Below are positions 780 to 61,804 of a DNA stretch of 64,000 nt, one piece after another (position 1 is the first letter of the stretch; each line of letters opens with the position of its first letter). The stretch spans positions 372,001 through 436,000 of the forward strand of contig OZ037772.1 of NCBI GenBank assembly GCA_964035545.1, written 5' to 3'. This stretch comes from Bugula neritina (taxonomy: Eukaryota; Bryozoa; Gymnolaemata; Cheilostomatida; Bugulidae). The position numbers were made by a program, and so were the translations under genes. The notes beneath the pieces were generated by a model that was given only the letters and a program-made list of their open reading frames with translations, had not been told where the DNA came from and made no database searches.

Positions 780-3700
780 AGGAGACAGTAGCATCCCATG
801 ACTTGGCATCTTTGAGTGATTTGTCTTGTGAGTTACGAGAAAGTCTGACTGGTGGAATAGAGACTCTGTCTGAGAAAGTTGCAGAGTTGAATGACATCTC
901 AAAGGATGCCTGGAAAGAACTGAGTAAAATAGAAGATGAAGTGAAGAAGATGGTTGCCAGAGTAAACTCTGTAGCTGACGCTCAGGTATGCTGACATGAT
1001 GATGTCATCTAATGTATTTCTGTTTGTCTGAAATTAGGTTTTGCATGTGGTCTTTGAGTTGTAAATAGAAATGAATTCCATTTGCCACTAGAATTAACTG
1101 GCCATTAAAGCTTTATCATTCTGTGTACAAGTAGCAGTAGTCATTCATCACATGTTACTCAGTGCAGAGGAACCTGTCAATACAGATGACTCACTCATCC
1201 TTCTGCAACTGTCAATCACTCACACACAGAGAGGTTGGCTGTGTGAGTGATTGACAGGTGTCAGGAGGAGGAGACTAGTCACGTGATGTACTAGCTCTCT
1301 GCTGTGTATAGAGTGTCACGTGACTGAGTCATTGTCCACTCAGTGGGTGATCTGTTATTTTCATTTCAAGTGTAGAGGTTGTGAGGTGCAGATGTGGTTA
1401 CGCTGTGTTACTATTTATTAGATAGAAAAGATTAGAAAGAGAGCTACAAACCTGAGGCTAGAAATATATGGATATTTGAAGAGCTGCACACAGAAAGTGG
1501 ATAATTATAGAATAGAGCTGGCCTTGAGTAAGACAATGGGCAGACAGTCTCTGCTGGACACAGTGCAACATGCAGTTGATAAGTTCAATGATGCAGGGAT
1601 TGTGAGAGACTACAAAGAGATGAGTGAGAAGATGGAAAAGGCTACAGATATTGGTGTAATAGAGAAGTGTGTACTTCCAGACAGCATCTTGGTGCCAACA
1701 TGTAGGTGGAGTCTATAAATAGTAACACTAACTATAAATAACTTTCTGCTTGTAATTAGTTGAGTTGTTTTCACTGAATATTTTAATAGTAGAATAAGTA
1801 GATAGAGTTTATTTATTAGAGAATTGAGTTTTATTCTACTCTCACATTATGAGACATTTCTGCAGTGTTTCAGAGTTTATGATGTATAAGTGAGCTGCTA
1901 AACTGTGTTATGCTGACTACCTGCTGTCAGTATTAACAAGATATTCTCACTTAGACCTGTGCATCACGTAGCAACTTGTAGTAACTACAGACTGCTTGTA
2001 TTTAAAACATCTTTTTATTTTAAGTTTGAAAAGCTGTTCCCACCTCCTCAGGTGATGAGATTCCCAAGTTATAGAATTGTTATTTTGTTGTTGCAGACAG
2101 TGAAGACAGTCTGGGACTGAAGCTGCTGCAGCCACCATCTTCTCTACAGTCTGATGGACTTCCTGTACGTGACTTGTGTGGCTCAGTAAACATCTCAGCT
2201 GATGGACATCTTATGTGTGTGACACCAGGAGGTGTAGAAGTAATAAATAGAGACACTCTGGATACTATCAGCTCAGTGAAACACACCAACACTACAGGGT
2301 GGTGGGAGATAATCCAACCTGAAGGGGTGATGGTTGGCAGCTGGTATAACAGAGAGGAGAAAACAGCTGAAGTCTCACTTCTTGATCCGAACTCCTTTGA
2401 GAAGACTCGCTCTCTCTACAAGCAGCCATTAAATGTACCCTTCCCCACTTACTATAGAATAACTCAGCACGACTCACTGCTCTATATTGTAGACAATAGA
2501 GAGAAACAGCTGGTAGTCTGTAATCTAGTTGACAATAAAATGCAGAAGTTCCCACTTCCTGAGATGGAGTTCCCTGACCCTGTATGCATCCTCCCAGACT
2601 CAACTCTCCTCATAGGAGACTGGACTGAAGATGGTGCAGTGAGAAGATACAAAGTGGAGAACACAACTCTCTCTCTAATGTGGGAGTTTCCTCACATCTC
2701 ACATCCAACTGGTATTTCCTTTGATCCAACATCTGAACTGATTCACATCTGTACAGCATATGGACCTCTCCTCATCCTCTCACTTGAAGGTAAATACTGT
2801 GTTTATTATAGTAAGTTTAGTTATTTTATATATAATTATGTTGTAGTAAATAATATATTTTAATAATTAACAGTAAACAACTCCCACTCATAAGATATAT
2901 TATGACATTGTTAGTATTTATCAAGTCGCTGAGGTTATTTTTAGCTAAAAGTTATGTAATAAAGACTGTAACATGCTGATAGTAGATGTTATATTCTTCA
3001 TCACATGACTTGTAGCTAATAATAATATTAGTGAATAATACTGCCTCCCTGCAATAAGTTTATTTCCAGCTGCAGTAACATGCAGGATGTAAGCACAGGT
3101 AAAAGTGTATATTATATTGTATAGGTTTAAGGTGTACTCTGTGTAGTGTGCAGTGAGCTCTTAGTAAACTCTCTATTCAGTCTTCCTTTCCAAGGGTTCA
3201 CCTGGTAGTGTAGAGGATAGGGACTCCACACTGCTGAGTGAGTTGGTGCTGCAAGGGGTTTAAACCCACCTATCAGCATGTCTAATTAGTATACTATGCA
3301 AGTGTTTTACAGTAATTTTAGAGGTGCTCAGTCTAACAACTGTACAGACTGCCAGCTACACATGAGTTATGAGTTGTAGTTTGACTTCAGTCTAGTGCTG
3401 CTGTTGTTTTGGTCATCAGATAATTTAATTATAAATAATTTGATACTTTTTGACTGCCATTGCTGAGACTAGTGTAATTTGATGATGGCTGGTAGAGCAG
3501 TGTTTGCTGGTGGGACTCAGGTGGCCGTGGTTGGTTCTTGTTAAGTATTTTATATGTGATAATGTTGGAGTAGCTGCAGTAGTATTAGAAGTAGACATGT
3601 GGGTGTGTCCTTGCTCAGAGCCACAGGCTAAGTTTGTGGGTCAAGGTCAATACAGTTGTATAATAAGATATTATTTTCTGCTGTTTGAGTATTTACTTCA

Positions 3701-3927
3701 TGCATATAACCTGCTGAGTTCCATCTTTAAAGGCAGTCTGTCTGTTTCTCTCAATACACACCAACTGATACAATATGATGCTATTATTTACAGGTCAACT
3801 GGTGCTTACTGTTCCCAGAGAAAGTCTTGGTGTGAGTGCCGAGGTGTGGGACATTGCTGTGTATAACAGAGACACAGTGTTTCTAGCATGTCAAGATGGT
3901 CTGAAGAGATACACAATAAAATACTAA
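780..3927 (+). CDS. TRIM-like protein, copy A (exons 4-7; 5' part outside window)
   Basis: Four exons are visible: 780-985, 1422-1701, 2097-2789 and 3794-3927 (stop TAA). All splice phases agree. Exons 4-5 encode a charged, Leu-rich, probable coiled-coil region. Exons 6-7 encode about 275 residues with recurring patterns such as ISADGHLMC, GGVEVINRDT, LLYIVDN and ISFDPTSELIHIC, typical of a beta-propeller. The C-terminus is RYTIKY. The RING and B-box exons seen in copy B must lie left of base 1. No stop or frameshift is seen, so this part could be functional. TRIM proteins are usually ubiquitin ligases whose C-terminal domain chooses the target; the target here is unknown. AATAAA at 4105-4110 is a plausible polyadenylation signal. 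Confidence 0.85.
1209..1257. repeat. Perfect 18-bp inverted repeat (intronic hairpin)
   Basis: CTGTCAATCACTCACACA at 1209-1226 is mirrored by its exact reverse complement at 1240-1257, with a 13-nt loop. It lies in the intron between TRIM exons 4 and 5. The copy B equivalent (about 34,650-34,700) has mismatches in the right arm. Confidence 0.85.
3200..3270 (+). other. tRNA-like / SINE-head-like segment, copy A
   Basis: A box-A-like stretch (TGGTAGTGTAGAGG) is followed about 50 nt later by GGGTTTAAACCC, a degraded box B. It lies in the last TRIM intron. The copy B counterpart has the better box B. A complete cloverleaf is not evident, so this is more likely a tRNA-derived relic than a tRNA gene. 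Confidence 0.3.
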
Positions 3928-4640: not shown

Positions 4641-4644
4641 GGTC

Positions 4645-5215
4645 TCCATAGTATTGATGGTACACTACCTTGTTTGGCCTCAATAGTATTGATAGTATAC
4701 TACCTTGTTTGGCCTCAATAGTATTGATGGTAGACTACCTTGTTTAGCCTCACTAGTATTGATGGTACACTACCTTGTCTGGCCTTAATATTATAGATGG
4801 TATATTACCTTGTTTGGCTTCAATAGTATTGATGGTAGACTACCTTGTTTAGCCTCACTAGTATTGATGGTACACTACCTTGTCTGGCCTTAATATTATA
4901 GATGGTACATTACCTTGTTTGGCCTCAATAGTATTGATGGTATACTACCTTGTTTGGCCTCAATAGTATTGGTGGTAGACTACCTTGTTTGGCCTCAATA
5001 GTATTGATGGTATACTACCTTGTTTGGCCTCAATAGTATTGATGGTATACTACTTTGTTTGGCCTCAATAGTGTTGATGGTAGACTACCTTGTTTAGCCT
5101 CAATAGTATAGATGGTACACTACCTTGTTTGGCCTCAATAGTATTGATGGTATACTACTTTGTTTGGCCCTAATAGTATAGATGGTACACTACCTTGTTT
5201 GGCCTCAATAGTCTT
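4645..5215. repeat. 35-bp minisatellite, copy A (about 16 units)
   Basis: Tandem units contain CAATAGTATTGATGGTA followed by TACTACCTTGTTTGGCCT. Sequence variants alternate (GTAGAC, GTACAC, TTATAGATGG). Copy B has about 25 units. Confidence 0.95.
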
Positions 5216-30224: not shown

Positions 30225-33200
30225 ATGGCAGAATCCAGAGTTGTGAAAAAGAGACTAAACAATTCGTATCGCTGTGGGTACTGCTCGCAGTACTTCAACA
30301 AACTTGAAGATCCCAGAACTCTGCCATGTCTGCATGTGTACTGCATGAGATGTTTGAAGACTGACATCGGTGGTAGGAAGGATCATATCAGATGTGCTTA
30401 TTGTAGGTGAGTTACAGTACATAACACAATATATCATGTCGTAGGCTTGCGTATGATTTTCTCACTATCATCTAGGAGTTGTCTGGTCTATGTCTATGAA
30501 AAGCAAACAATACTGTGTATTCTATGTGAACTCTGGTTACCAACTTGTGGAGTGTGTGGATATCTTCTCATTAGGTAGAGAAAGTAACTGTTATGTAGAT
30601 TGCATCATCAGCTGTCCTCTCTTGTTGAATTGGGTATACTGTTGGATGTCATGGGATTGGGGTTGTCTCCTCATTATATTATTTTGTTCTCATACAGTAC
30701 AATACTTGTTAGACCAACCTTTTTCATATCATTCCCACTTTCATAAATGTTTACTATTGATTATCCCCCCTTTATAAAAAACGAAAAAATTTATGACTGA
30801 CATAATGATAATATAGATTACTATGCAATATTTTTTCTATTACATTTGAATATAATATAATTATTTCTGATAATTATATTGTACATGTATAAAACACAGA
30901 GCAGTTCAATTATTAATATTATGGCTGCAGCTGATGACATTGTGTCAGCTTGCTTTCCAATCGCCCACCCCAACCCTTAAACCCCAACCCCAATATTGAA
31001 ATTAAAACACATTCATGTAGAAGTAGACTGAGAAGGCAGAATTGGTTAAATAGATAAGCTAAGATGAATGCTTATAGATATACATGTACATGTAACTTGC
31101 AAGAGCTCAAAAGTCTTTACAAACTGCTTGAAATTTTCAAAATCGAAATCCAGGCTCCCCCCTAAAAAGCCCGAATTCCCTCTTATAGGGGGATTCTCCC
31201 AGGTTGGGAACCATTGTGTTGAATTGACTTGTGTTTACTATCTCCTTTCCTGTGATTATAAACATGTATGATGTTGTCATGACAACAGAGTTGCTGTGGC
31301 ACAAAGTACAGTTTACTAGTATGTAGTGATTGTGTAGTGAGAGTGGAGTGTCTGGTTATTGTCCATGGTTATGTGTAATCTGTAAGGAGTAGAATTATAT
31401 TATTTTAATATAATGTTGAGAGAGGTACTTTTATAATGGCAGTTTGCTCAATAGTTTTAGTTCTAATGCAATAGACTCATAGCTCTGGAGTCTAGCAGCT
31501 GCTACTATTACCACTAGCTGTTCAAAATTCGGCCAACATCCGGGCTGCCAAACCATAATAGCCATTGGCAAGGCCAAGCAGTCACTGAGAAATTATTTGA
31601 CTAAAGAGCAGGTCTTATGACAATTAGTAGTCAGTCCCTTAGACAGGAAACAGTGATTCTGTGACCTATGTAGTTAAATCCATTGCTGAACTTTTGATTG
31701 ATTATTAGATAGCCATCACAATTGTGTTTGGTGGTAAGTTGTACAATATAATATTATGGGGTGTCAATCAGTGTCTAATATAATCTGTGAATTGAGTGTC
31801 TCCTTTAGCTTTGATGAGTTGATTACTTTGTACTGAGTCATGAATAGTGTTGAGGATTTGGGCCTTTATTATGCCAACCCCCCCCCTCTGACTTAAACTG
31901 TGACCCAACCTGCTGCACATACATAGTAGTACTACACTGAAGATAGTTAACATGTGTATATATCATATACATATATATATAACATATATATATACATGCA
32001 TATATCATCCTACTAGTAATGGATTACTAAGTACAACTTATCCTATGACTCACTTTTCTTATGCTAGCTGCACGAGATAGACAACACACACGTGACACGC
32101 ACTCACAGTGCACTAGCTCTTGACACATTGCCAAGGATGATGAAATGACAGTTTCGCGCCACTCCTAGCAGTTAGAGTGGCAGGGAATAGTTGTAGTATG
32201 TTGTAGTATTGACTTCAGAATTCACACCTCAGTAAGTAGTTGCATTGCACAAACTTGCAACAAAAGTGAATAATTATTGACAATATGGCCTCCACTCAGT
32301 AGTTAACTAGTAATTTGTCTTGTAATTTTACTCTACAAGTTACAGTTGAGTCTATTTGTTGAGTAGCAGTTCTTTGTCATGAGTGACTATTTTCCAGCAT
32401 ATTAAGTACATAATATAGTCAAGTGTGTTTGTGTGATAGCCTGTGGTCTATATAATGAATGTGTGTTGATGGGTGATGAGTATTTATTTGAGTATTTGTC
32501 AAGGACATAGCTGTGTGTGTGGATGGAGTATTTCATCACTTGAGATATACTAAACACAGCTAACACAGGTAACATACTGATTGCTATATATTGTAGGAAA
32601 GATCACTATGACATCACGGATCCCACAACACTACCAGTAGCTCAGCATGGAGACCCCTTAGAATACAAGTCTCCACCCAAACCTGCACCCATTCCCTGCG
32701 ATGTTTGTAAAGGTGGAACTGAAGCTGCTGTGTTTTGTGTCGACAGTCAAAAGAAATTGTGTCAGCAGCATCAAGAAGTGAGTCTTTCTTATATAATTTC
32801 TCAAGATTAGTTACTAAACCAGTTCTGGTTTGTATGTAGAATATTATTGAAAAGAAATGTTGAGTCTGTGTGACTTTTTATACTAAACACACAGTTTCAC
32901 AGTGCAGTGAGTCAACTATGACAGACTTGTTGGTGAAAATACAACCAACTAAACTGTTGACCTTTATTATACAGAATCACAGAGAGCTGATGGGAGATAG
33001 ACATCAGTTTATTGACATTGAGGTCTACAGAGCTTCTCCCCAAAGATATACTATAACTGAGTGTGAACATCATAAACAGGAACAGCTGACAGAAGTGTGT
33101 TCCAAGTGTCACCAGATATTCTGTATGAGATGTGATATGAAGACTGGCTGTAAGGATAAGACAGGTATTTACTTGCTGTTTCTATTTCTGTAGAAAGAAA

Positions 33201-36200
33201 CTGAGAAATGTTACAAGAACCTGTTATTTATTATTTTATTATTAAAGTGAGTTATGTAACAGTAAAAGAGGAAGTAAGTTTGTCAGCATTAAGGTTTGTG
33301 TGAGACAGAAGTGGATAGTGCAGGAGTTTATATTCTCACTGTTATGTTGAATATTTAGTATATTTCATCCTTCAAGTGTCTGTTTCCTTGATAAGATGGT
33401 ATAGGCATAGCTTTAACTCAGTTGTGTCCCACCTTTTTTATAAATATTTTCTATTAAGTTTCCGCCTCTTTGATAAAATTGTAATTTCATTTATAAAGAA
33501 AATCTCGGACAGGTTGTTTTCCTAATAATTCATTGAGTGTAGAAAAAAGCACTTTGTATTTGACATGGACCAGTGTCTGCCGCAACTTCAGTTCAGCTTT
33601 GAAAGCATTGATGCTGCTATTAAAAGCAGTGAGTTGATGATTATAATCATTCATTTTAGGTTCAAAGTTTTTAGTACAGCAAATATATCTACTAGGTATG
33701 CAATAAGTAGTTCATGGAGATCAGATTGACTCACTGCAAAAACTTGCTGTTGGTTTTTACTTTCAAGAAACTTTTTAACCTCCATTCATAGTAGGAGGGG
33801 TAGCAGCTAGGGTAGAAAAGGAAAAGGCACTTTGTGTTTGGCATGGACCAGTGTCTGCCACAACTTCAGTTTAGTTATAGAACACATACATGTAACCTGG
33901 AAAACAAGGCAAGAGCTCAAAGAGCTAGTAAACTGTGTGAATTTTTTAGAAATGAAACCCCTGGAAAGCCCAAATTCCCTGCAAGGGGAATCCCCCAAGG
34001 TTGGGAGCCACTGCTCTAACTTTTTCAATTATATTATTCTAAGTGCAGTGATTAATGAGCTAACCTGTGAAATATTTCTAGTCTAACCAACTGTCTAGTT
34101 ATCACATAGTATGTGTATAGTGATACATCATCAACCTGTAGGTACAAGTAGCAGGTGTAGAATAAGTACAATATCACATCTATAATAATGTTTTTATAAA
34201 TAGTGTGATTTTATGTATACAGAGGAGACAGTAGCATCCCATGACTTGGCATCTTTGAGTGATTTGTCTTGTGAGTTACGAGAAAGTCTGACTGGTGGAA
34301 TACAGACTCTGTCTGAGAAAGTTGCAGAGTTGAATGACATCTCAAAGGATGCCTGGAAAGAACTGAGTAAAATAGAAGATGAAGTGAAGAAGATGGTTGC
34401 CAGAGTAAACGCTGTAGCTGACGCTCAGGTATGCTGACATGGTGATGTCATCTAATGTAATTCTGTTTGTCTGAAATTGGATTTTGCATGTGGTCTTTCA
34501 GTTGTAATCAGAAATGAATTTCATTTGCCACTAGAATTAACTGGCCATTAAAGCTTTATCATTCTGTGAACAAGTAGCAGTAGTCATTCATCACATGTTA
34601 CTCAGTGCAGAGGAACCTGTCAATACAGATGACTCACTCATCCTTCTGCAACTGTCAATCACTCACACAGAGAGGTTGGCTGTCTGAGTGATTAACAGGT
34701 GTCAGGGGGAGGAGACTAGTCACGTGATGTACTAGCTCTCTGCTGTGTATAGAGTGTCACGTGACTGAGTCATTGTCCACTCAGTGGGTGATCTGTCACT
34801 TTCATTTCAAGTGCAGAGGTTGTGAGGTGCAGATGTGGTTACGCTGTGTTACTATTTATTAGATAGAAGAGATTAGAAAGAGAGCTACAAACCTGAGGCT
34901 AGAAATATATGGATATTTGAAGAGCTGCACACAGATAGTGGATAATTATAGAATAGAGCTGGCCTTGAGTAAGACAATGGGCAGACAGTCTCTGCTGGAC
35001 ACAGTACAACATGCAGTTGATAAGTTCAATGATGCAGGGATTGTGAGAGACTACAAAGAGATGAGTGAGAAGGTGGAAAAGGCTACAGATATTGGTGTAA
35101 TAGAGAAGTGTGTACTTCCAGACAGCATCTTGGTACCAACATGTAGGTGGAGTCTATAAATAGTAACACTAACTATAAATAACTTTCTGCTTGTAATTAG
35201 TTGAGTTGTTTTCACTGAATATTTTAATAGTAGAATAAGTAGATAGAGTTTATTTATTAGAGAATTGAGTTTTGTTCTACTCTCACATTATGAGACATTC
35301 CTGCAGTGTTTCAGAGTTTATGATGTATAAGTGAGCTGCTAAACTGTGTTATGCTGACTACCTGCTGTCAGTATTAACAAGATATTCTCACTTAGACCTG
35401 TGCATCACGTAGCAACTTGTAGTAACTACAGACTGCTTATATTTAAAACATTTTTTTATTTCAAGTTTGAAAAGCTGTTCCCACCTCCTCAGGTGATGAG
35501 ATTCTCAAGTTATAGAATTGTTATTTTGTTGTTGCAGACAGTGAAGACAGTCTGGGACTGAAGCTGCTGCAGCCACCATCTTCTCTACAGTCTGATGGAC
35601 TTCCTGTACGTGACTGGTGTGCCTCAGTAAACATCTCAGCTGATGGACATCTGATGTGTGGGACACGAGAAGGTGTAGAAGTAATAAATAGAGAGACTCT
35701 GGATACTATCAGCTCAGCGAAGGACACCAACAATACATGGTGGGGGGAGATAATCCAACCTGAAGGGGTGATGGTTGGCAGCGGGTATAACGAAGAGGAG
35801 GAAACAGCTGAAGTCTCACTTCTTGATCCGAACTCCTTTGAGAAGACTCGCTCTCTCTACAAGCATTCAGTAGATGTACCCTTCCTTTACTATAGAATAG
35901 CTCAGCACGACTCACTGCTCTATATTGTAGACACGAGTGAGAAACAGCTGGTAGTCTGTAATCTAGTTGACAATAAAATGCAGAAGTTCCCACTTCCTGA
36001 GATGGAGTTCCCTGACCCTGTATGCATCCTCCCAGACTCAACTCTCCTCTTAGGAGACTGTGCTGCAGATGGTAAAGTGAGAAGATATAAAGTGGAGAAC
36101 ACAACTCTCTCTCTAATGTGGGAGTTTCCTCACATCTCAGTACCATCTGGTATTTCCTTTGATCCAACATCTGAACTGATTCACATCTGTACAGTGGAAG

Positions 36201-37367
36201 GACCTCTCCTCATCCTCTCACTTGAAGGTAAATACTCTGTTTATTATAGTAAGTTTAGTTACTTTATATATAATTATGTTGTAGTAAATAATATATTTTA
36301 ATAATTAACAGTAAACAACTTCCACTCATAAGATATATTATGATATTGTTAGTATTTATCAAGTCACTGATGTTATTTTTAGCTAAAAGTTATGTAATAA
36401 AGACTGTAACATGCTGATAGTAGATGTTATATTCTTCATCACATGACTTGTAGCTAATAATAATATTAGTGAATAATACTGCCTCCCTACAATAAGTTTA
36501 TTTCCAGCTGCAGTAACATGCAGGATGTAAGCACAGGTAAAAGTGTATATTATATTGTATAGGTTTAAGGTGTACTCTGTGTAGTGTGCAGTGAGCTCTT
36601 AGTAAACTCTCTATTCACTCTTCCTTTCCAAGGGTTCACCTGGTAGTGTAGAGGATAGGGACTCCGCACTGCTAAGTGAGTTGGTGCTGCAAGGGGTTCA
36701 AACCCACCTATCAGCATGTCTAGTTAGTATACTATGCAAGTGTTTTACAGTAATTTTAGAGGTGCTCAGTCTAACAACTGTGCAGACTGCCAGCTACACA
36801 TGAGTTATGAGTTGTAGTTTGACTTCAGTCTAGTGCTGCTATTGTTTTGGTCATCAGATAATTTAAATATAAATAATTTGATACTTTTGACTGCCATTGC
36901 TGAGACTATTGTAACTTGATGATGGCTGGTAGAGCAGTGTTTGCTGGTGGGACTCAGGTAGCTGTGGTTGGTTCTTGTCATGTATTTAATATGTGATAAT
37001 GTTAAAGTAGCTGCAGTGGTATTAGAAGTAGACATGTGGGTGTGTTCTTGCTCAGAGCCACAGGCTGAGTTTGTGGGTCAAGGTCAATACAGTTGTATAA
37101 GGAGACAGTATTTTCTGCTGTTTGAATATTTACTTCATGCATATAACCTGCTTAGTTCCATCTTTAAAGGCAGCCTGTCTGTTTCTCTCAATACACACCA
37201 ACTGATACAATATGATGCTATTATTTACAGGTCAACTGGTGCTTACTGTTCCCAGAGAAAGTCTTGGTGTGAGTGGCGAGGTGTGGGACATTGCTGTGTA
37301 TAACAGAGACACAGTGTTTCTAGCAGGTGGAGATGATGGACTGAGGAGATACACAATAAAATACTAA
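30225..37367 (+). CDS. TRIM-like protein, copy B: RING, two B-boxes, coiled coil, propeller-like C-terminus
   Basis: Seven exons with fully consistent phases: 30225-30406, 32597-32777, 32975-33164, 34223-34428, 34863-35142, 35538-36227 and 37231-37367. The total is 1,866 nt, 621 residues plus stop. The start ATG sits in AAGATGGC. Exon 1 is a RING finger (CGYC, CLHVYCMRC, CAYC), suggesting E3 ubiquitin ligase activity. Exon 2 holds a B-box (CDVCKGG, CVDSQKKLC, H..H). Exon 3 holds a second one (CEHH, CSKCHQIFCMRCD). Exons 4-5 are probable coiled coil (dimerisation). Exons 6-7 are a propeller-like domain of about 275 residues, by analogy the target-binding part. Its target is unknown. AATAAA is at 37,549-37,554. 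Not assignable to a named TRIM. Confidence 0.92.
30709..31218. mobile_element. hAT-like MITE in TRIM copy B intron 1
   Basis: The left end (ACCAACCTTTTTCATATCAT) and right end (CCCAGGTTGGGAACCATTG) match the family at 37-611 and 33,419-34,013. The internal match includes AAGCCCGAATTCCC. The ends are degraded and no clear 8-bp target duplication is seen. Confidence 0.6.
31219..32596. other. TRIM copy B intron 1, remainder
   Basis: No second gene is seen. It contains an ATATAT-rich block at about 31,950-32,005 and otherwise unremarkable DNA. Confidence 0.5.
33419..34013. mobile_element. hAT-like MITE, copy B, with 8-bp target duplication
   Basis: The element starts CAGTTGTGTCCCACC and ends AAGGTTGGGAGCCACTG. 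The flanks CTTTAACT (33,411-33,418) and CTCTAACT (34,014-34,021) differ at one base, fitting the 8-bp target duplication of hAT elements. About 595 bp, non-coding, with an internal repeated motif (TTTGACATGGACCAGTGTCT). It lies in the intron between TRIM exons 3 and 4. Confidence 0.8.
36630..36712 (+). other. tRNA-like / SINE-head-like segment, copy B
   Basis: TGGTAGTGTAGAGG resembles box A, and GGTTCAAACCC at 36,695-36,705 is a perfect box B. Spacing is about 50 nt. No convincing acceptor stem pairing was found, so a SINE head or tRNA pseudogene is preferred over a working tRNA. Confidence 0.4.
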
Positions 37368-38090
37368 ACTTATCAGCTACAGTCTACTAATAATCAGCTC
37401 AGTGAGGTACTGAGAGATAAAATGGATAATATTTGCCATCAACATAATTATATTCATTACAATTCATCAATACACACACTCTGCACGTAATTATAGTTAG
37501 ATATGACATGTTTTACTGTATCAAATATGTGTTGTCATTTTACTATCTAATAAAGTTTATTTGTTAGTGAAAACATAGTCTGTTTTCATGCCTCTTTAGC
37601 TTTAGTTCAAGTTGAGTTCGGTTACTAAAAAATAATCTTTACTGGAGCAATAACTGTAAATGATTTGTCCGTGGGAGAATTTATTTTGCAAATTGACATG
37701 CAGGTGCAAGTAACTCCAACATGACTTAGCAAATTTATTCCAACCATTCAAAATAATATACATTCCATTGCTGTGTACAACAGCATTGAGTAGCCAATCA
37801 AATTGTTTCTTGTCATGCAATCAGGAATCTGATAAACAATATATAAGGCAATCAACTAGATATAAACACTGTATTACTCTACACATGAGCTGTCTATGAT
37901 ACAGCTGTTTTGTAAACTGTGTGTAATTTGATGAGTTTAGTTCAATTGGTTGCAGTTTAATTATGACATGTTCCCCATTCACCTGGTAGAAATACCTTGT
38001 GTGCACAGACAAGTTGTAATGACTAACAGAAACTTTTTCAGTAGGTTCCAGTTCATCTTGAATATAATAGTACAGCTTGTTGTCATTTGG
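37368..38090. other. TRIM copy B 3' UTR and flank
   Basis: Near-identical to 3,928-4,640. AATAAA at 37,549. No gene recognised. Confidence 0.5.
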
Positions 38091-38980
38091 TCTCCATAGT
38101 ATTGATGGTACACTACCTTGTTTGGCCTCAATAGTATTGATAGTATACTACCTTGTTTGGCCTCAATAGTATTGATGGTAGACTACCTTGTTTAGCCTCA
38201 CTAGTATTGATGGTACACTACCTTGTCTGGCCTTAATATTATAGATGGTATATTACCTTGTTTGGCCTCAATAGTATTGATGGTAGACTACCTTGTTTAG
38301 CCTCACTAGTATTGATGGTACACTACCTTGTCTGGCCTTAATATTATAGATGGTACATTGCCTTGTTTGGCCTCAATAGTATTGATGGTAGACTACCTTG
38401 TTTAGCCTCACTAGTATTGATGGTAGACTACCTTGTCTAGCCTCACTAGTATTGATGGTACACTACCTTGTCTGGCCTTAATATTATAGATGGTATATTA
38501 CCTTGTTTGGCCTCAATAGTATTGATGGTAGACTACCTTGTTTAGCCTCACTAGTATTGATGGTACACTACCTTGTCTGGCCTTAATATTATAGATGGTA
38601 TATTACCTTGTTTGGCCTCAATAGTATTGATGGTAGACTACCTTGTTTAGCCTCACTAGTATTGATGGTACACTACCTTGTCTGGCCTTAATATTATAGA
38701 TGGTACATTACCTTGTTTGGCCTCAATAGTATTGATGGTATACTACCTTGTTTGGCCTCAATAGTATTGGTGGTAGACTACCTTGTTTGGCCTCAATAGT
38801 ATTGATGGTATACTACCTTGTTTGGCCTCAATAGTATTGATGGTATACTACTTTGTTTGGCCTCAATAGTGTTGATGGTAGACTACCTTGTTTAGCCTCA
38901 ATAGTATAGATGGTACACTACCTTGTTTGGCCTCAATAGTATAGATGGTACACTACCTTGTTTGGCCTCAATAGTCTTGC
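38091..38980. repeat. 35-bp minisatellite, copy B (about 25 units) with higher-order repeat
   Basis: Same unit as 4,645-5,215 but longer. Three unit variants (GTAGAC..TTTAGCCTCA, GTACAC..TCTGGCCTTA, TTATAGATGG..TTTGGCCTCA) recur as an approximately 105-bp block, several times in a row. Confidence 0.95.
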
Positions 38981-49097: not shown

Positions 49098-52000
49098 ATG
49101 AACTGGCAAGAGAAGTTGATTAATGCAGTGAGTAATTTTCTTTACAATTCTTATAAAATTTGTGATAAAAAATGGCACTTTTTCAATTTCTCCGTGAGTT
49201 TCACTATGTCATACATTCAAAGTCAGTCATTCAGATTCAGTTATACTTATTGGCAATACTCATACTCATAGTGATAGTCGAACTCAATCAGTCAATGTGA
49301 ATGTCATAGTGATTGTTAGATTACCACAATGTAATAGTATGTCTTACCAGTGATAAAGCTGCTAGATGAAAGAGACCGTTCACTCTGTTTGTCTGGGTTT
49401 TATCTGCTTTAGCTTGTAGCTATCTCAGCTATACGGTGGCTGGTAGGGCAACTCTTAGTAACACGATAGCTCAAGTATCTGATAGGCTATTGTCATTAGC
49501 TAAACTCTCAGCGTGCCACTATAACATGCCCCCTTCCAATAAAGGCTGGTGACCACCTGCTAAAACTAAGCATTTCAATTACATACTATTTCTAAAAGCT
49601 ATAAGCTGATGAGTACCACATGTCTGTGGGTAAACTTACTCACCTCTATTTGCCAGAAACTGTAAACACAAGCTTTAACTATTTGTAATTTAGTAGTTCG
49701 CGAGTCAGTGTGTCGTTGAGTGTGTGAGTAAATAAGTAGGTGAGTAAGTTAGGTGAGTAGGTTGTTTAGTGTGTCGGTAAGTGTGTAAGTAAGTGAGTTG
49801 GGATCGGAGGATGTTCTCACCCTCTTCTCCCTCAGTCTCAGTTGCCTGAGACTGACCAGAACCTCAATGCAGTGCTTCGGGATTAGAAGATGTTTCCATC
49901 TTCACCTCCCCAGTCTCAGTTGCCTGAGGCTGACTAGGACTGTAGGTCGGTCTCAGACCAAGGTCTGAACCACCATGTACACCGGGGGTCTGGGGCTCTA
50001 CGGCCATTGACTCCTCCCAAGTGTCGTCCCGAGGGCAACCTGGGGTCGGCGACTCCTCTACGGCCTTTGACTCCTCCTGGTTACCACTGGGACCTTCCGC
50101 AACTGTGGTTGCAGGGTTTAGTATTGTGCTACCCAACCCTCTGGAATGCACGTTGGCCACGCTGGCCCAGTTTTCGATTGCTACTTTAATAGCCATTGAG
50201 CACTGATACTCCTTTTCCAAGAGACTCTCTCGCTCACTGATCTCTTCCATTTGCCTGTTGAACTTTCGTTGAAGTTCTTGCTTTTTTCTATTTAATTCCT
50301 CTTTCCTTAGTGCATAAGCCTTCCCATCCAGGAAGTCGCACCCCGTCAAGCCATTCAGGAACCCTGAAACTTCACTGACAATAACATTTTTAGGCTTTAA
50401 TGCATGAACATAGCTTGATGATGTAGCTACACCACCAGAGGCAACACTTGCATAGTTTGATTTCTGACTACCTGAAACCTTGGCTAATTTTGGTGCTGGA
50501 TCTTGAGAGTCAACACCATTAACAGCCTTCCGCTTGAAGCTAGAAGGTGCGTGACTACAGTCTGAGGTTTTGTGTTGGGCTGCGACACAACACCAACTGC
50601 AATAGACTTCTCTGCAGTCCTCCACCCAATGACCTTTCTGCCCACACCTGTAACACTTATTATTGGGACAGTCTCGGGCAGAGTGATCCCTGAAGCATCT
50701 ACAGATGGCACACCTAATTGTGCCCTTGTTGCCACATACCTCATGTGGCTTCTTAAGCTTAGCCTTATCTTCTGTATTCTTGGGCTTACCCTGGGGGTTA
50801 GCTACTTTTACCGTTTCTTTATGTCTTCCTGAGGGTCCGGCTTTAGACCAAGAGTCCATGTCGGGTTCCCCTATACCTTCCTTCTCTTTCTCACTATTGC
50901 TCATTGTTTGTCTCTTTCTCTATCTATATATTGTTTTTCTCAAGTTTTTTAAAACGATATCTATAAAAAACACATTATTATTTATACCTCTGCATGTTTA
51001 GTCTATTAGGAGGTTTGCTTAGTCTCCCCCGTCTAGTATGCGTAATTTCTCCTTGTTCAGGAGGAAATAACTTGCTGTCATTGCAATCATATAGTCAGCT
51101 TGCAAATCTGACTCTCCTATAACCCTTATTCCTATCACTACTCCCACTACTTGACCTATAAGGTTTGGTCTCTCTTTCAGGGCAATCTTTAGTGGTGTGC
51201 CCTCGGCAGTTACATACGAAGCACCTTACATCAGGGCAGTCCCTAATTCTATGATCATGTTTTTTACAATGATAGCAAAGATTTCCTTCTCTTCTAGGGG
51301 AGCTAAACCTTTTAGACCTAGAATGATAGTAACCCGAATTCGGTCTATCTACGAGAGGTTTTTCATCCCTCCTCCTTCGTTGGCTTGAACAGAATTTATC
51401 CCTACTATTGTAATGTTGTTTACTATGATCATCAGAGCTATTACTAGATCCACTCGAGCTTCTACTTCTATAGTGGTCACTATTCCTAAGGCTACTTCTC
51501 AAATAAGGTCTCCACTTTATTCTAGATCTAGAAACCCTATTAACAGAATAACTGTCACAGTTGTCACTGCTACTGTTTCTAGTCTGCTTAAGAGAACTTA
51601 CAGCCCCGACTTCTTGTTTGATGTCCACTATTTTCCTAGCTTCATTTAAAAGTAGGTATGAGTCTCTAGCTAGCTTTTTTGCTTTAGGCTTGGTATTTAA
51701 GTTGTGAGGATGAAAGAGAATACTTGCTGAGAGTAGGAAAACTTAGTAGAGAATTAGGTTTAGGTGCTGGGACCGAGGATGTTAGAAGGAGACTTAGTGT
51801 TGCCTTACCAGTAAATGGCTTGCGCGATACTAATGCTAGGAGACAATTATTGCAAGAACCCGATTTATCCTGGGACGACTTAAATACCAAGCTTAAAGCA
51901 AAAAAACTAGCTAGAGACTCAGACCTACTTTTAAATGAAGCTAGGACAATAGTGGACGTCAAACAAGAAGTCGGGGCTGTAAGTTCTCTTAAGCAGACTA

Positions 52001-54147
52001 GAAACAGTAGCAGTGTCACAGTTGTCACTGCTACTGTTTCTAGTCTGCTTAAGAGAACTTACAGCCCCGACTTCTTGTTTGACGTCCACTATTGTCCTAG
52101 CTTCATTTAAAAGTAGGTCTGAGTCTCTAGCTAGCTTTTTTGCTTTAAGCTTGGTATTTAAGTCGTCCCAGGATAAATCGGGTTCTTGCAATAATTGTCT
52201 CCTAGCATTAGTATCGCGCAAGCCATTTACTGCTAAGGCAACACTAAGTCTCCTTCTAACATCCTCGGTCCCAGCACCTAAACCTAATTCTCTACTAAGT
52301 TTTCCTACTCTCAGCAAGTATTCTCTTTCATCCTCATCAATGGCCTGTGACACTGTCACAAACCTCATTGTTTTAACATAAAAGCTATCTGACCTATCAT
52401 AGTGGCCCCTAAGTAGACCTAATGCTTGCTCATAGCCTTCATTCCCATTGTTTCTCAAATCAAAGCCAAGAGATTGTAACGTGGCTCTACCATCATTGCC
52501 TATTGCGCTCAACAATGCTAACAACTTAGTCCTACCTCTAAATTTATTTACTTCTACACCCTCCACTGTCTCTTTTCCCAGATTCAAAGTAGTTAACTCT
52601 ACTGTTATCTCAAATTGAGCTAGCCAATCATTCCATGATCCTGTCACATCATTACAATTCAATTGAAGTCTTGGAAATGAATTTAAATCCATGACTTTGT
52701 TGTTACAATTCCCTGTGCTACAAAGGTTACTACTTGTACTAGTTTGGAGCCTTGATTTACTCGTGTGTTATGTCAAGATGCCAATCACAAAATATCTTAA
52801 ACACTGAGTATCACTGTTTCGGTCACTTGTTGTAAATGACTGTAGTATCACAGTTGCCAGCTGTGAATCACGATATCAAATTAAGATTATCACTCATTAG
52901 ACTACACTAACAATAACACTACACTAACAATAACACTACACTAACAGTAACACTGCACCACCAGTAACACTGCACCAACAGTAGCACTGCACCAACAGTA
53001 ACACTGCACCAACAGTAACACTGCACTGCACTGCACTACACTGCACTACACTACACTACACTACACTACACTACACTACACTACACTTATATTATTATAT
53101 TATATTCAAAACACTTGCAACTGATAATGATTAATTGAAGAAAGTACTTATCTATCATCTATAGTTGTAAGGACAGAAAGAGGTTCTCACTGGCAGGTTC
53201 GTTAAAATGCTGACTGCGCCATGTTAGATTACCACAATGTAATAGTATGTCTTACCAGTGATAAAGCTGCTAGATGAAAGAGACCGTTCACTCTGTTTGT
53301 CTGGGTTTTATCTGCTTTAGCTTGTAGCTATCTCAGCTATACGGTGGCTGGTAGGGCAACTCTTAGTAACACGATAGCTCAAGTATCTGATAGGCTATTG
53401 TCATTAGCTAAACTCTCAGCGTGCCACTATAACAGTGATACTAGTGTTGGTCAGTACTGCACATCATCCAACACGTAATAATGGTTCAATTCATCATTTA
53501 TACTATTTGTTGTTCTAATTTCAGGTCAGGGAAAGACCATGCTTGTGGGACAAGAATCATAAACACTACATGTATAAAACTGTGAAAGAAAATAACTGGA
53601 AAGATGTTAGCAAAGAATTAGGAAATTTATTTGATGGTAGTTTATCAGTTTAATGAAGTAATTATGTCTATTGTAATCAGATATTTAATCTACCACTTTT
53701 CAAGTTTACTTTTGACTTTTATAATCTTTAGAAAAAGCATGTGCTCTGAAGTATCGGAACTTGCGGGACACCTACGTGAGACTGAAAAGAGAACAGTTAA
53801 AAGTACCCAGTGGCTCTAGTCCGATTGAACCGCCAAAATGGCCTTTTTTTCAATTGTTCAGCTTCGTGGATAATAAGAGTGGTGCAGAAAGGTTGGTTTG
53901 TCCTTACGTTAAGTAGTTTATTTATTTTTTCAACAAACAAACTTTAAAAATTATAAAATTATTTAATACACATCAAGTAATTTATTTTGCAGTAGTATAG
54001 CTGACAATATGCCATCAGAGGATATCGTGCAAGAACTTGCGACCACTGATACAGATACAGCGACAGCAAGCAGCCAGCAGCCGGCAGCCAAAAAGAAAAA
54101 AAATGACACTGCAATGAAAGAAATAGACTTGGAAATAAAAAAAATAG
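49098..54147 (+). CDS. MADF-domain DNA-binding protein, 3'-truncated
   Basis: Exons: 49098-49127 (MNWQEKLINA), 53525-53636 (RERPCLWDKNHKHY, NWKDVSKELG), 53732-53891 (LKYRNLRDTYVRLKRE, PPKWPFFQLFSFVD) and 53993-about 54147 (Gln/Lys/Thr-rich). Phases agree throughout (0, 1, 2). The order W..LI..V.ERPCLWD...W..V...L......RNLRD.Y is the MADF domain, a Myb/SANT-related DNA-binding fold. The fourth exon runs into the collagen minisatellite before any C-terminal motif such as BESS, so the 3' end is lost. A 4.1-kb LTR element sits in intron 1 in the opposite orientation. Confidence 0.8.
49314..49526 (-). repeat. 3' LTR of the compact element
   Basis: 213 bp, identical to 53,222-53,434. Preceded on the plus side by GTGAT. 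Confidence 0.95.
49527..49538 (-). other. Polypurine tract of the compact element
   Basis: Minus strand reads TTGGAAGGGGGCA and then the LTR's TGTTATAG. This is the usual plus-strand primer position. Confidence 0.8.
49864..50904 (-). CDS. Zinc-knuckle protein of the compact LTR element (346 aa)
   Basis: Intact frame. Three CCHC-type knuckles lie at about residues 60-115 (CAICRCFRDHSARDC, CYRCGQKGHWVEDC, CSWCCVAAQHKTSDC). A charged, probably helical stretch (KEELNRKKQELQRKFNRQ) lies at about 200-235, and the C-terminus is acidic and Pro/Thr-rich. No protease DTG or RT YxDD motif. It probably binds nucleic acid. It is separate from the gag-like frame, which has its own knuckles, and its role is unknown. 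Location between LTRs, in the element's sense direction, argues that it belongs to the element. Confidence 0.75.
   Translation of the reverse strand: MSNSEKEKEGIGEPDMDSWSKAGPSGRHKETVKVANPQGKPKNTEDKAKLKKPHEVCGNKGTIRCAICRCFRDHSARDCPNNKCYRCGQKGHWVEDCREVYCSWCCVAAQHKTSDCSHAPSSFKRKAVNGVDSQDPAPKLAKVSGSQKSNYASVASGGVATSSSYVHALKPKNVIVSEVSGFLNGLTGCDFLDGKAYALRKEELNRKKQELQRKFNRQMEEISERESLLEKEYQCSMAIKVAIENWASVANVHSRGLGSTILNPATTVAEGPSGNQEESKAVEESPTPGCPRDDTWEESMAVEPQTPGVHGGSDLGLRPTYSPSQPQATETGEVKMETSSNPEALH
51095..52692 (-). pseudogene. gag-like gene of the compact element, interrupted by an inverted duplication
   Basis: It starts at 52,692 (MDLNSFPRLQLNCNDV). The first part is a capsid-like domain (WNDWLAQFEITVE, RTKLLALLSAIG, LLRGHYDRSDSFYVKTMRF). 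The end (51,628-51,095) has Ser/Arg-rich sequence and two knuckles (CYHCKKHDHRIRDC, CFVCNCRGHTTKDC). Between them, 51,705-52,015 is an inverted copy of 52,026-52,336, followed by a second, slightly different forward copy of part of the same segment. The single frame is therefore broken: the first part runs into the inverted arm and stops at 51,931. Confidence 0.8.
51705..52336. repeat. 311-bp inverted repeat inside gag
   Basis: Arms 51,705-52,015 and 52,026-52,336 are almost identical, with a 10-bp spacer. One coding difference is seen (ALPVNG against ALAVNG). Confidence 0.93.
52895..53090. repeat. Short tandem repeats in the compact element's 5' leader
   Basis: ACTACACTAACAATAAC units change to ACTGCACCAACAGTAAC units (17 bp), then to CACTA pentamers. 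Confidence 0.9.
53204..53221 (-). other. Primer-binding-site-like sequence of the compact element
   Basis: Minus strand TGGCGCAGTCAGCATTTT directly follows the 5' LTR. It starts with TGG, as expected for pairing to a tRNA 3' CCA end. The tRNA is not assigned. Confidence 0.6.
53222..53434 (-). repeat. 5' LTR of the compact element
   Basis: 213 bp, identical to 49,314-49,526. Followed on the plus side by the target duplication GTGAT. Confidence 0.95.
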
Positions 54148-56372: not shown

Positions 56373-59300
56373 TCACAATTGCGTCTCCTTATACCTTGGA
56401 AACGCAACTCTCAATTGCTCGTCCCCCCAGATTTCTTTTATGATAGCAGATGGATGTTTTTCCACTGCATCACACAAGAAATCTTTTAAATAAGATGGAG
56501 GCGCCCTAGTGCGTTGGCTACGCTCCAACTGCACTGGGGAATTTGCTACGACTGGTGACTCTTCCACCACGGGTGGTGTCGCCAGTACGGGGGGGTCCAC
56601 CAGTACGGGCGGTCCCCCCCCAGCTGCCTCTTCCTCATGATTTTGAGGAATTGCCATCTCATCCGGGACGATGGGCCTGTCGACCGGCTCCACAGGTGGT
56701 GGGGCCGGCTCCGACAGGTCTTTAGGTGTGTCGACCTCCTCTTCCTGGGGTGGAGGAGGTGGGGGCTGGTCGGCTGGCGCATCAGCCGCCCCGTCCTGGT
56801 CTGGCAGTATCTCCTCAATCTCTCGATATGCCATGGGTCGCCCCCTCATAGGAGGGCGCCTAGCTGGCTCTAAGAGAGGAGGTGCTTGACCTGCCGCATC
56901 AGGACTCGCCCAGTGAGGTTTAAGCCGTGCCTCGTTCTGGACCGACACTTGTCCAGACCGTTCCACTTTGTATGTATGATTTGGCATTACCTCAATTACG
57001 CAGTAGGGACCTACGAACTTCGGCTGCAACTTGGCTGCCTGTCCGCGCCTGCGGCGATGACTGGTCATCCAGACCCAGTCCCCCACCTTGTATAAGGGTG
57101 GGTCGTCAGAGTCACCACTCCTGACCTGCCACTGCTGCTCACGTAGCACCTCGTGAGCCGTCCCCATGCGTTTTACGAGCTTGTCCACGTAGTCGTGGAC
57201 ATTGCTCTCTGGATTCGGAACATGATAGGTTACGTGCTCAGGAACCCTTGTTTCTCTCCCCAGCATGAGAAAATTAGGGGTCTCCAGTGTACTGGAGTGA
57301 GGGGTACTACGGTACGCTCGCATGATCTGCGGCAACACCAAGTCCCACTCTTCCTGGCTCCTACCGATAAGCAGGCTTCTCAGAGAGTCCCCTAGCATTC
57401 GGTTGTTCCGCTCCACGACCCCGTTCCCTTGCGGGTGATACGGGGTCGTCCGACTCTGGTTTACCCCCCACATTCTACAGAGATCGCTCATAAGTTGCGA
57501 CTGAAACTGGGCGCCCTGGTCAGAGTGTATCTGCTCCGGCAAGCCGAAATAGCAGAACACCTGTTGATCCAGAGCTCTGGCCACCGAGGGGGCCGACGCA
57601 TCTGGAATAGCCAGTGCATCAGACCACCGCGTGAAATGGTCAGTTAATACCAGTATCCAGTTATTACCTCTCGCTGTAGTGGGCATGGGGCCTACCAGAT
57701 CGACAGCAACCACCTGCCACGGACGACCGGCATGGAGGCGACGCCTCCCTGCGGTCTCAGTGGGGCGGCCATGCTTGCTAGCTTGGCACACCTCGCACTT
57801 CCGCACCCGGAGTCGGACATCCCGGGTCATACCGGGCCAAAACCACTGGAGTTGAAGACACCTGATCACCCGGCTAGCTCCTGCGTGAGCTTGCTTATGG
57901 GTGTCCCAGATCAACTCCCGCCGCAGAGCTGACGGGCAGACTACCCTCTCTCGTTCACTGCGATTGGTGCCGACTGCCAACGTAATCGTTAGCAGCCCAT
58001 CGCTGTTGAACCTTAGGGAGTCCCAGCGGTCACAGAAGTACTTAAACTCAGTACTCTTCACTCGCTGTTCGGCCTCACTTGGCCGCCGTCCCTCCTTCTT
58101 GGCCCGGACTAGGTCAGCTACCACTCCTGGTAGCGTGGACTGGAGCCGGCATAGCTCCCTGACGTTCCGAAGCAACGTGGGGTTTGCGTGAAAGTTGTTA
58201 ACAGCTTTGTTGGGTGATTCGGACAGGAGTTGCCCTTCTTCCCAGCTGTACACACCCGCTTTCCCCAACTGCGCTTCGACGTCCGAGCGAGGGGGTCCAC
58301 CGTCCCTGCGCTCGATATTCTGGCATTGCTTACACCCATCTGCCTGGCGGCGGCTGAGTCCATCTGCATTACCGTGTTTCTTACCGGGTCGATGCTCGAT
58401 CCGATAGGAAAACTCTGCCAGGATCTCTAGCCAGCGCGCCACTTGGCTGGATGGTTCTGCCCGTCGACACAGCCATATCAGGGACGCATGATCCGTCCGA
58501 AGCCGGAATGTGCGCCCATATAGATATGGTCTAAAGTGTTTGACCGCCTTGACTACTGCCAAGAGTTCCCTCCTGGTTGTACAGTAGTTCTTCTCAGGCG
58601 CCGACAGGGCCTTGCTATAGTAAGCCACCACCACCTCGCGACCATCTTGGACCTGCGACAGCACAGCCCCCACATTATGGTTACTGGCATCAGTATCCAA
58701 AATGTACTCCTTCGCAGGGTCAGGATACGCCAAGATGGGTGCTTCCACCAGGCGATCCTTCAGGTGGTCAAATGCCTTCTGCTCAACCTGTGTCCACTGC
58801 CATCGCACCCCCTTTGCGGTCAGCCGATTCAACGGCTGTGCAATTCCTGCGAAGCCTGGTATGTACTGACGATAGTACCCCACCAGCCCCAGGAACGCCC
58901 GCAATTCAGAGAGGTCGACAGGAACAGCCCAGTCCCTCACAGCCCGTACCTTCTCGGGGTCAGTGGCGACCCCGTCTCGACCAACTACATGGCCCAGGTA
59001 CTTGACCTCGCGTTGCAGTAATGCACACTTCGAGGGCTTTAGCTTCAGGTTAGCAGCTCGGAGTCTGTCGAACACCTCCCTGAGTCGACTGACATGTGTG
59101 TCGAAGTCGGGGGAGATGACGATGACATCATCGAGATATATGAGCAAGGTCTTCCAGTGCAGCCCACTCAGGACCTGCTCCATGAGTCGCTGGAAGGTGG
59201 CTGGTGCGGACGTAAGTCCGAATGGCAACACCTTCCATTTCCAGAGCCCATCCCGCGTTATGAACGCGGCCTTGTCCTGTGCTTCAGGACTCAGGGGCAC

Positions 59301-61768: not shown

Positions 61769-61804
61769 CTTACTCCCTGACTAGGGGCATTTGTATTAAG
61801 TGTG

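What the first reader, a model, noticed from the sequence alone, without database searches (positions are those of the whole stretch)
35538..37367. Propeller-like domain of the TRIM paralogs shows far more replacement than silent change
Comparing exon 6 of copy A (2097-2789) with copy B codon by codon, I count 31 replaced codons, one codon deletion and only 3 purely synonymous codons (CTT/CTG, AAA/AAG, TAC/TAT). The changes cluster, for example NREEKT against NEEEET, QPLN against HSVD, WTEDGA against CAADGK. Exons 4-5 show about 5 replacements, and the 395-bp intron before exon 6 differs at only about 6 positions. So the exon is changing several times faster than non-coding DNA beside it. Diversifying selection on a recognition surface, or conversion from a more distant paralog, would explain it. 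A RING/B-box ligase with a variable binding domain in a tandem array resembles an immune or self/non-self receptor family. That function is inference.
Basis: partly seen in the sequence, partly recalled or inferred. Interest (0 to 1): 0.88.

Follow-up and report, generated by a model that had tools for sequence, protein, structure and literature searches.

The report
Bryozoan ubiquitin ligases with hypervariable propellers
A colonial sea animal carries a large array of very similar ubiquitin-ligase genes that differ most at a ring of surface residues on one face of a propeller domain, which looks like an inherited repertoire of intracellular recognition proteins.

Summary
It is family-wide. 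The RING exon's protein is identical in 53 of 150 scored rows. In 48 copies, 18 exon-6 codons have mean pi 0.46 and 0.54 at positions 1 and 2, against 0.035 in intron 5. All 18 map to one face of the predicted propeller. Silent variation there is not raised, and the residues are conserved in most of the few orthologs of outlying copies, so hotspots or lost constraint do not explain it. All 48 combinations differ and exon-6 linkage is near the floor. Best reading: a germline repertoire of intracellular E3 ligases diversified by selection, probably with gene conversion, probably immune. The layout matches fungal HET-D/HET-E propellers. Targets and function are inference.

The parts
30225..30406 (+). 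Copy B exon 1: start codon and RING finger (C3HC4 pattern, by eye), aa 1-60
   Evidence: protein identical over 60 aa in 53 of 150 rows scored; pN/pS 0.03 among 13 copies
32597..32777 (+). Copy B exon 2: end of RING and first B-box-like zinc finger
   Evidence: pN/pS 0.12 among 19 copies
32975..33164 (+). Copy B exon 3: second B-box-like finger (PF00643 E 0.0035, below cut-off)
   Evidence: pN/pS 0.40
34223..34428 (+). Copy B exon 4: probably helical / coiled coil (inferred from composition)
   Evidence: pN/pS 0.41
34863..35142 (+). Copy B exon 5: probably helical (inferred from composition)
   Evidence: pN/pS 0.63
35143..35537 (+). Copy B intron 5, the neutral yardstick, pi 0.035
35538..36227 (+). 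Copy B exon 6: blades 1-5 of the propeller with 18 hypervariable codons
35615..35623 (+). Hypervariable residues 26 and 28 (assigned by me to the D-A side of blade 1)
35660..35668 (+). Hypervariable residues 41 and 43 (end of strand B and B-C turn, blade 1)
35723..35746 (+). Hypervariable residues 62, 67, 69 (D-A loop and start of strand A, blade 2)
35792..35794 (+). Hypervariable residue 85 (B-C turn, blade 2)
35876..35878 (+). Hypervariable residue 113 (D-A loop into blade 3, which also varies in length)
35933..35938 (+). Hypervariable residues 132-133 (B-C turn, blade 3)
36008..36016 (+). Hypervariable residues 157 and 159 (D-A loop and start of strand A, blade 4)
36059..36067 (+). Hypervariable residues 174 and 176 (B-C turn, blade 4)
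36140..36142 (+). Hypervariable residue 201 (D-A loop into blade 5)
36194..36199 (+). Hypervariable residues 219-220 (B-C turn, blade 5)
37231..37367 (+). Copy B exon 7: end of propeller (blade 6, inferred) and stop; variable codons at 37275, 37278, 37284 and 37329-37337
   Evidence: 20 copies; loop assignment by analogy, exon 7 was not modelled
780..985 (+). Copy A exon 4
1422..1701 (+). Copy A exon 5
2097..2789 (+). Copy A exon 6 (propeller)
3794..3927 (+). Copy A exon 7 and stop (its exons 1-3 lie upstream of the window; the whole gene is intact in L028)

Best explanation
The two genes belong to a germline-encoded repertoire of cytosolic TRIM-like E3 ubiquitin ligases in the bryozoan Bugula neritina. 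Each has a constant catalytic end (RING, B-box-like fingers, helical region) and a six-bladed propeller whose D-A and B-C loops form a hypervariable binding face. Shown: the array, the constancy of the RING, the position of the variable sites on the predicted fold, the excess of replacement change, the near-free assortment of variants in exon 6. Inferred: the mechanism. Each copy binds a different target protein by the variable face and ubiquitinates it; selection favours new binding residues, and short gene-conversion tracts among copies probably help to shuffle them while keeping the framework alike. The most likely targets are proteins of intracellular parasites (viruses, mobile elements, bacteria).
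For: Excess of replacement change is confined to the propeller: pN/pS for exons 1-7 is 0.03, 0.12, 0.40, 0.41, 0.63, 1.32, 1.30 (13-20 copies). In 48 copies exon-6 dN exceeds dS in 83% and exceeds intron-5 divergence in 98.7% of 1128 pairs. In 24 non-overlapping pairs the exon-6 ratio is 1.30, Fisher P 0.0013. The 18 sites have mean pi 0.46/0.54/0.21 by codon position against 0.035 in intron 5, yet a silent difference between two copies with the same residue is as rare there (0.030) as elsewhere (0.034). 18 of 18 sites fall in the D-A/B-C half (107 residues: 14 sites in loops, 4 in adjoining strand ends) and 0 in the other half (100 residues), Fisher P 4e-6. L010/L011 and L024/L031 are identical over 673-674 flanking bases and differ in exon 6 by one codon each, both times a replacement at one of the 18 sites. 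In exon 6, r2 falls to about 0.03 beyond 30 bp (1/n is 0.021), and 48 of 48 combinations are distinct. Copies look like genes: 54 of 59 propeller exons have a same-strand RING exon within 20 kb upstream. The highest 19-residue hydropathy is 1.49, inside the propeller, so no membrane span is apparent and the protein is probably cytosolic. Environmental relatives of outlying copies L083, L085, L086 keep 56 of 63 hypervariable residues, while those of clustered C8 and C2 copies keep 31 of 130, about the level between array members (0.23).
Against: No target, expression, ligase-activity or population data. RING and B-box score below Pfam's curated cut-offs. Whole-exon ratio is only 1.3, and no codon-model likelihood test was run. 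The comparison of exon 6 with flanking sequence in the 24 pairs (P 7e-82) is inflated, because pairs were chosen for similar flanks. Conversion is not proven: outside exon 6 linkage stays higher (r2 0.06-0.20 at 30-500 bp, 30 sites), so low linkage in exon 6 may owe as much to recurrent selected change, and 11 of 153 site pairs are associated at P<0.01. With a looser threshold (diversity above 0.3) 4 of 39 sites fall on the other half of the propeller. Intron 5 itself has 8 bases with pi above 0.4. The ortholog contrast rests on 4 environmental proteins and 3 loci; a fifth pair, P0003 with L082, keeps only 5 of 18. An immune role is argued from analogy.
Confidence: 0.6

Rival explanations
1. 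Colony allorecognition: the propellers recognise polymorphic proteins of the same species, as HET-D/HET-E do with HET-C in Podospora, and gate colony fusion or rejection.
For: Same layout of diversity as the fungal allorecognition propellers. A review of bryozoan interactions says fusion may occur only between closely related individuals and that B. neritina larvae show kin recognition (passages, PMC11686985). The draft-genome paper mentions only weak similarities to the allorecognition gene Alr1 (passages, PMC7576161).
Against: No apparent membrane span, unlike surface allorecognition receptors (recalled). Dozens of loci are more than one or two polymorphic loci would need. No allele data.
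Confidence: 0.17
2. Endogenous use: the variable face sorts many host proteins or gives cells an identity code, with no parasite or non-self partner.
For: Outlying copies L083, L085, L086 keep their variable residues in environmental relatives, 56 of 63, so some members seem to have a fixed partner.
Against: Array members turn over at the variable residues far faster than in their framework, unusual for fixed host substrates.
Confidence: 0.1
3. Relaxed constraint or local hypermutation at loop codons, without selection for diversity.
For: 14 of the 18 sites are in loops, which tolerate change.
Against: Mean diversity at their first and second positions is 13 to 16 times that of intron 5, which lost constraint alone cannot give; silent variation is not raised at the same codons; loops of the other face are nearly constant (mean diversity 0.03-0.06 against 0.32-0.42); the residues are conserved in most relatives of outlying copies.
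Confidence: 0.03
4. Silent donor cassettes: only one or a few copies are expressed and the rest feed variants into them by directed conversion, as in antigen variation or lymphocyte receptor systems.
For: Low linkage in exon 6; identical flanks with differing exon 6, L036/L042; mosaic copies such as L086, about 97% to copy B over exon 5 and 76% over exon 6.
Against: 54 of 59 propeller exons keep an upstream RING exon and the RING is under strong constraint, as expected of working genes rather than donors.
Confidence: 0.05
5. One conversion tract from a distant paralog, or an assembly error, explains the A/B difference.
For: Large family of high identity.
Against: Differences are scattered single codons at the same sites in several independent sets; 53 of 55 copies open; the assembly paper reports QV 53.7 and about 132-fold long reads (passages).
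Confidence: 0.02

Closest known systems
HNWD NLR family of Podospora anserina (het-d, het-e; WD40 propeller sensors)
   Same: Near-identical framework attributed to concerted evolution; a few hypervariable codons per blade on the top face, in the D-A loop and the B-C turn, in pairs i and i+2 (7/9 and 25/27 there; 26/28, 41/43, 67/69, 157/159, 174/176 here, the other 8 sites here not so paired); many distinct combinations (55 among 69 repeats there, 48 of 48 genes here). Read: abstract, section list and sections 9 and 10 of PMC1805685, passages of PMC12222747.
   Different: Fungal NLRs with a HET effector and NACHT domain; there the repeats within a gene are alike and exchanged, whereas here whole propellers differ among genes and the effector end is a RING. 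No WD40 match in Pfam at E up to 1.
finTRIM, bloodthirsty-like and TRIM35-like families of fish; TRIM5alpha
   Same: Large lineage-specific families of RING / B-box / coiled-coil proteins with hypervariable, positively selected loops in the C-terminal domain. Read: passages of PMC3137616.
   Different: Their variable domain is B30.2 (PRY/SPRY); here it is a propeller, and no B30.2 domain was matched.
TRIM-NHL proteins (TRIM2, TRIM3, TRIM32, Thin)
   Same: RING and B-boxes followed by a propeller (recalled); RING matches TRIM2, TRIM3 and TRIM32; Foldseek match to the NHL domain of Thin, 6xg7, TM 0.66 on the query.
   Different: No NHL repeat matched in Pfam at E up to 1; no comparable array or hypervariable face in TRIM-NHL genes is known to me (recalled).
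Tachylectin-2 of the coral Oculina
   Same: A propeller protein of a sessile animal with positively selected residues, proposed to be immune. Read: passages of PMC2880987.
   Different: Alleles of a lectin-like protein; its selected sites were not significantly clustered in space.
Nematode and plant F-box / MATH ubiquitin-ligase adaptor families (recalled, not read)
   Same: Large families of ubiquitin-ligase parts with fast-evolving substrate-binding domains.
   Different: Different domains, and adaptors rather than whole ligases.

Membership tests
TRIM (RBCC) proteins | N-terminal RING finger | tested here: met
   PF13445 E 5.6e-5 (23.5 bits, just under the cut-off of 25.2), residues 17-57; PDB sequence matches to RING-containing chains of TIF1-beta (TRIM28) and TRIM2, E about 3e-5; zinc ligands visible in the sequence
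TRIM (RBCC) proteins | one or two B-boxes | tested here: inconclusive
   PF00643 E 0.0035, 17.9 bits against a cut-off of 24.1; two Cys/His-rich stretches in the expected place, by eye
TRIM (RBCC) proteins | coiled coil after the B-boxes | not tested
   No coiled-coil predictor was run; residues 185-330 hold 5 Pro/Gly of 146, which suits helix
TRIM (RBCC) proteins | E3 ubiquitin-ligase activity | not testable with these tools
   needs a biochemical assay
TRIM-NHL subfamily | NHL repeats in the C-terminal propeller | tested here: not met
   no NHL family at E up to 1; only the fold is shared
finTRIM / class IV TRIM | B30.2 (PRY/SPRY) domain | tested here: not met
   no such match; propeller predicted instead
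HNWD NLR family | NACHT and HET domains, WD40 repeats | tested here: not met
   none matched
HNWD-like mode of diversification (works like) | hypervariable codons restricted to D-A and B-C positions on one propeller face over an alike framework | tested here: met
   18 of 18 sites above diversity 0.6; 35 of 39 above 0.3; pi at 183 quiet codons 0.014-0.035
Allorecognition receptor | polymorphism among individuals that segregates with fusion outcome | not testable with these tools
   one haplotype at hand

The most novel reading that the evidence does not exclude
An animal counterpart of the fungal HNWD system: a bryozoan anticipatory repertoire in which dozens of ligase genes with a constant RING carry combinatorially shuffled propeller faces, built convergently on the same loop pairs, serving immunity and perhaps colony self/non-self recognition.
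Probability: 0.45. Interest if true: 0.93.

Novelty: new variant of a known kind. Interest (0 to 1): 0.85.

Why it matters
The searches made here (listed in the full report) showed no known immune or allorecognition gene system for bryozoans, a colonial phylum with fusion and kin-recognition behaviour; this locus is a mapped candidate. It suggests that animals and fungi independently made the same face of a propeller into an evolvable recognition surface, coupled in one case to a RING ligase and in the other to an NLR. The framework is so constant and the variable sites so few that the specificity code could be tested directly by binding assays.

Tried and rejected
A first guess that the host was a sponge was dropped once chromosome lengths matched Bugula neritina. 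Exon 5 was read out of frame; its exon-5 ratios there are discarded and one search is used. An earlier count said 12 of 20 copies are wholly intact; recounting one search gives 11. Another entry says about 29 members in the second cluster; recounting one search gives 26. One conversion tract, assembly error, hypermutation and relaxed constraint were considered and are rejected above. Counting a 35-bp pattern gave 22 places and was less useful than the protein search. No codon-model likelihood test was run, because one tree would be doubtful where linkage is so low; diversity by codon position and non-overlapping pairs were used instead. Copies dropped: L025 and L058 (stops in exon 6) from the set of 55; L012, L023, L057, L059, L063 (gapped exon 5 or intron) from the pairwise and pi sets, leaving 48; L066 (frame broken) and L088 from the alignments of exon 6. 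Three of the 45 environmental proteins (P0044-P0046) were left out of the structure alignment. The lists were typed: 90 of 142 propeller rows and 102 of 150 RING rows, the rest being fragments or more distant; one row of 61% identity on C5 was left out by oversight.
Full report
Where it is. The window is 372,001-436,000 of contig C8 in a 215.8-Mb assembly. Contig lengths C1 35,640,107, C2 33,575,671, C3 32,418,041, C4 24,795,343, C6 16,049,455 and C8 13,348,985 equal chromosomes 1, 2, 3, 4, 6 and 8 (35.64, 33.58, 32.42, 24.8, 16.05, 13.35 Mb) of the colonial bryozoan Bugula neritina, tzBugNeri2.1 (passages with Table 3, PMC11480708). The identification rests on these lengths; total size and scaffold number differ slightly (216.00 Mb and 320 there, 215.85 Mb and 295 here).

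The observation. Copy B is a complete seven-exon gene whose 621 residues read through without a stop. It has a RING (best PDB sequence matches TIF1-beta/TRIM28, TRIM2 and TRIM56), weak B-box-like fingers, a part that is probably helical and a propeller that Pfam does not recognise. Copy A is complete too, with its first three exons outside the window (L028).

The family. A search with exon 6 as protein gave 142 matches. Ninety rows of at least 61% identity were taken on: 59 on C8 below 4.42 Mb, a few of them broken or partial, at a median spacing of 67 kb, the rest on C1-C4, C6, C8 and C9. Of the 59, 54 have a RING exon on the same strand within 20 kb upstream; 8 RING exons in the same stretch have no such partner. 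The 60-residue RING query has 53 perfect full-length matches among 150 rows scored, 48 of them on C8. Of 20 copies fetched at 8 kb, 11 have all seven exons intact, L025 has an internal stop in exon 6, and 8 cannot be judged in full because exon 1, or more, is cut off by or missing from the stretch; one of these, L019, also shows an early stop in exon 7.

The pattern. Among 53 open C8 copies, a small set of codons carries up to 13 amino acids while codons beside them hardly change. In 48 copies, 18 codons with amino-acid diversity above 0.6 have mean nucleotide diversity 0.46, 0.54 and 0.21 at the three positions; 27 codons of middling diversity have 0.24, 0.16 and 0.09; 183 quiet codons have 0.023, 0.014 and 0.035; intron 5 has 0.035. 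The threshold of 0.6 was chosen after seeing the data; the same threshold finds 0, 1 and 1 triplets in the three frames of intron 5 and none in exon 5, although intron 5 has 8 single bases with pi above 0.4. If these codons mutated faster, silent differences between copies with the same residue would be common; they are not, 0.030 against 0.034. The recent pairs are telling: two pairs identical over 673-674 bases upstream differ in exon 6 by a single replacement, each at a hypervariable site, and L036/L042, also identical upstream, differ at 20 codons of which 3 are synonymous.

Structure. AlphaFold2 on exon 6 with 44 aligned sequences gave mean pLDDT 85.9 and pTM 0.83, with five blades, the fifth lacking its last strand; residues 1-22 are mostly below 50. 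Labelling each residue from 23 on by the nearer set of loops puts 18 of 18 hypervariable sites in the D-A/B-C half (107 residues) and none in the A-B/C-D half (100 residues); at diversity above 0.3 it is 35 of 39. Labels come from the predicted strands, and residues 23-29, which hold two of the sites, were assigned by me; coordinates were not measured. Exon 7 carries further variable codons at what look like the equivalent places of a sixth blade. Solved folds matched include propellers of the Pizza6, NHL and WD40 kinds.

Independent replication. Per-site diversity in the C8 array correlates with that in 23 copies from other places (rho 0.61) and with 45 environmental proteins of unknown host (rho 0.54); at the 18 sites mean diversity is 0.76 and 0.81 against 0.18 and 0.32 elsewhere. 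A second cluster of 26 matches at C8 6.63-7.21 Mb, 22-26% identical, was sampled with 6 copies; variation again favours these sites (0.43 against 0.19, P 0.0008), though 5 of the 18 do not vary there.

How diversity arises. Linkage in exon 6 drops to near the floor within 30 bp, and all 48 combinations of the 18 residues differ, by 13.9 residues on average and as few as 1. Outside exon 6 linkage is higher and uneven (r2 0.06-0.20 at 30-500 bp, 30 sites), so the low linkage in exon 6 may come from recurrent selected change, from short-tract conversion, or both. Even among copies alike in framework, variable residues mostly match at about the random rate (0.19-0.26 up to 96% framework identity). 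Some copies are mosaics: L086 is about 97% identical to copy B over exon 5 and 76% over exon 6, while 5 of 8 C2 copies show the reverse, 71-78% over exon 5 and about 90% over exon 6.

The contrast. Environmental relatives of the outlying copies L083, L085 and L086 keep 56 of 63 variable residues at 92-96% framework identity, whereas relatives of clustered C8 and C2 copies keep 31 of 130 (P0016 counted with both); L082 behaves like the clustered ones with 5 of 18; no relative reached 90% framework identity to a C3 copy. So these residues seem to matter when a gene is left alone, and turn over inside the arrays. The sample is small: 4 proteins for the conserved class.

What it works like. The nearest precedent is the Podospora HNWD family, where codons 7 and 9 (D-A loop) and 25 and 27 (B-C turn) of each WD40 repeat are under diversifying selection on the propeller's interaction face (sections 9 and 10 of PMC1805685). 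The Bugula genes reach the same layout with a propeller in which Pfam finds no WD40 or NHL repeat, attached to a RING. They are not members of HNWD, finTRIM or TRIM-NHL by the features tested. A TRIM-like protein with no apparent membrane span should act in the cytosol, which favours intracellular parasites over surface recognition; this is inference.

Prior knowledge. Ten literature searches listed no title or abstract opening that describes such a family in bryozoans; several had far more papers than were listed, and only open-licence papers are held. The single paper holding both 'bryozoa' and 'tripartite motif' was seen in the listing only.

Noticed in passing
C8:6632672-7214740 of the same genome (outside the window; L089-L094): A second cluster of 26 distant propeller matches (22-26% identity) with RING-like matches in the same stretch; 6 sampled copies vary at partly the same loop positions.
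   Followed up: partly
C8:263239, 456614, 739519, 2726007, 3732591 (outside the window): Five short open fragments, each matching only about residues 30-91 to 30-95 of the propeller at 65-68% identity, and a sixth, shorter one; possibly a separate duplicated piece or exon relic.
   Followed up: no
4638-5216 and 38086-38979: A 35-bp minisatellite follows both gene copies, with about 16 and 25 units; 21-bp and 23-bp arrays are also shared by the two units. They could promote unequal exchange.
   Followed up: no
30225-32777 (exons 1-2) against exons 3-7: Silent divergence among copies is higher in exons 1-2 (pS 0.09-0.11) than in exons 3-7 (0.03-0.06), as if the 5' part were homogenised less.
   Followed up: no
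56373-61780, minus strand: A retroelement-like pair of long open frames (pol-like and gag-like, by eye) lies downstream of copy B; further gag-like frames at 49864-52767.
   Followed up: no
35709-36209, minus strand: A 166-codon open frame lies antisense to exon 6; probably chance.
   Followed up: no
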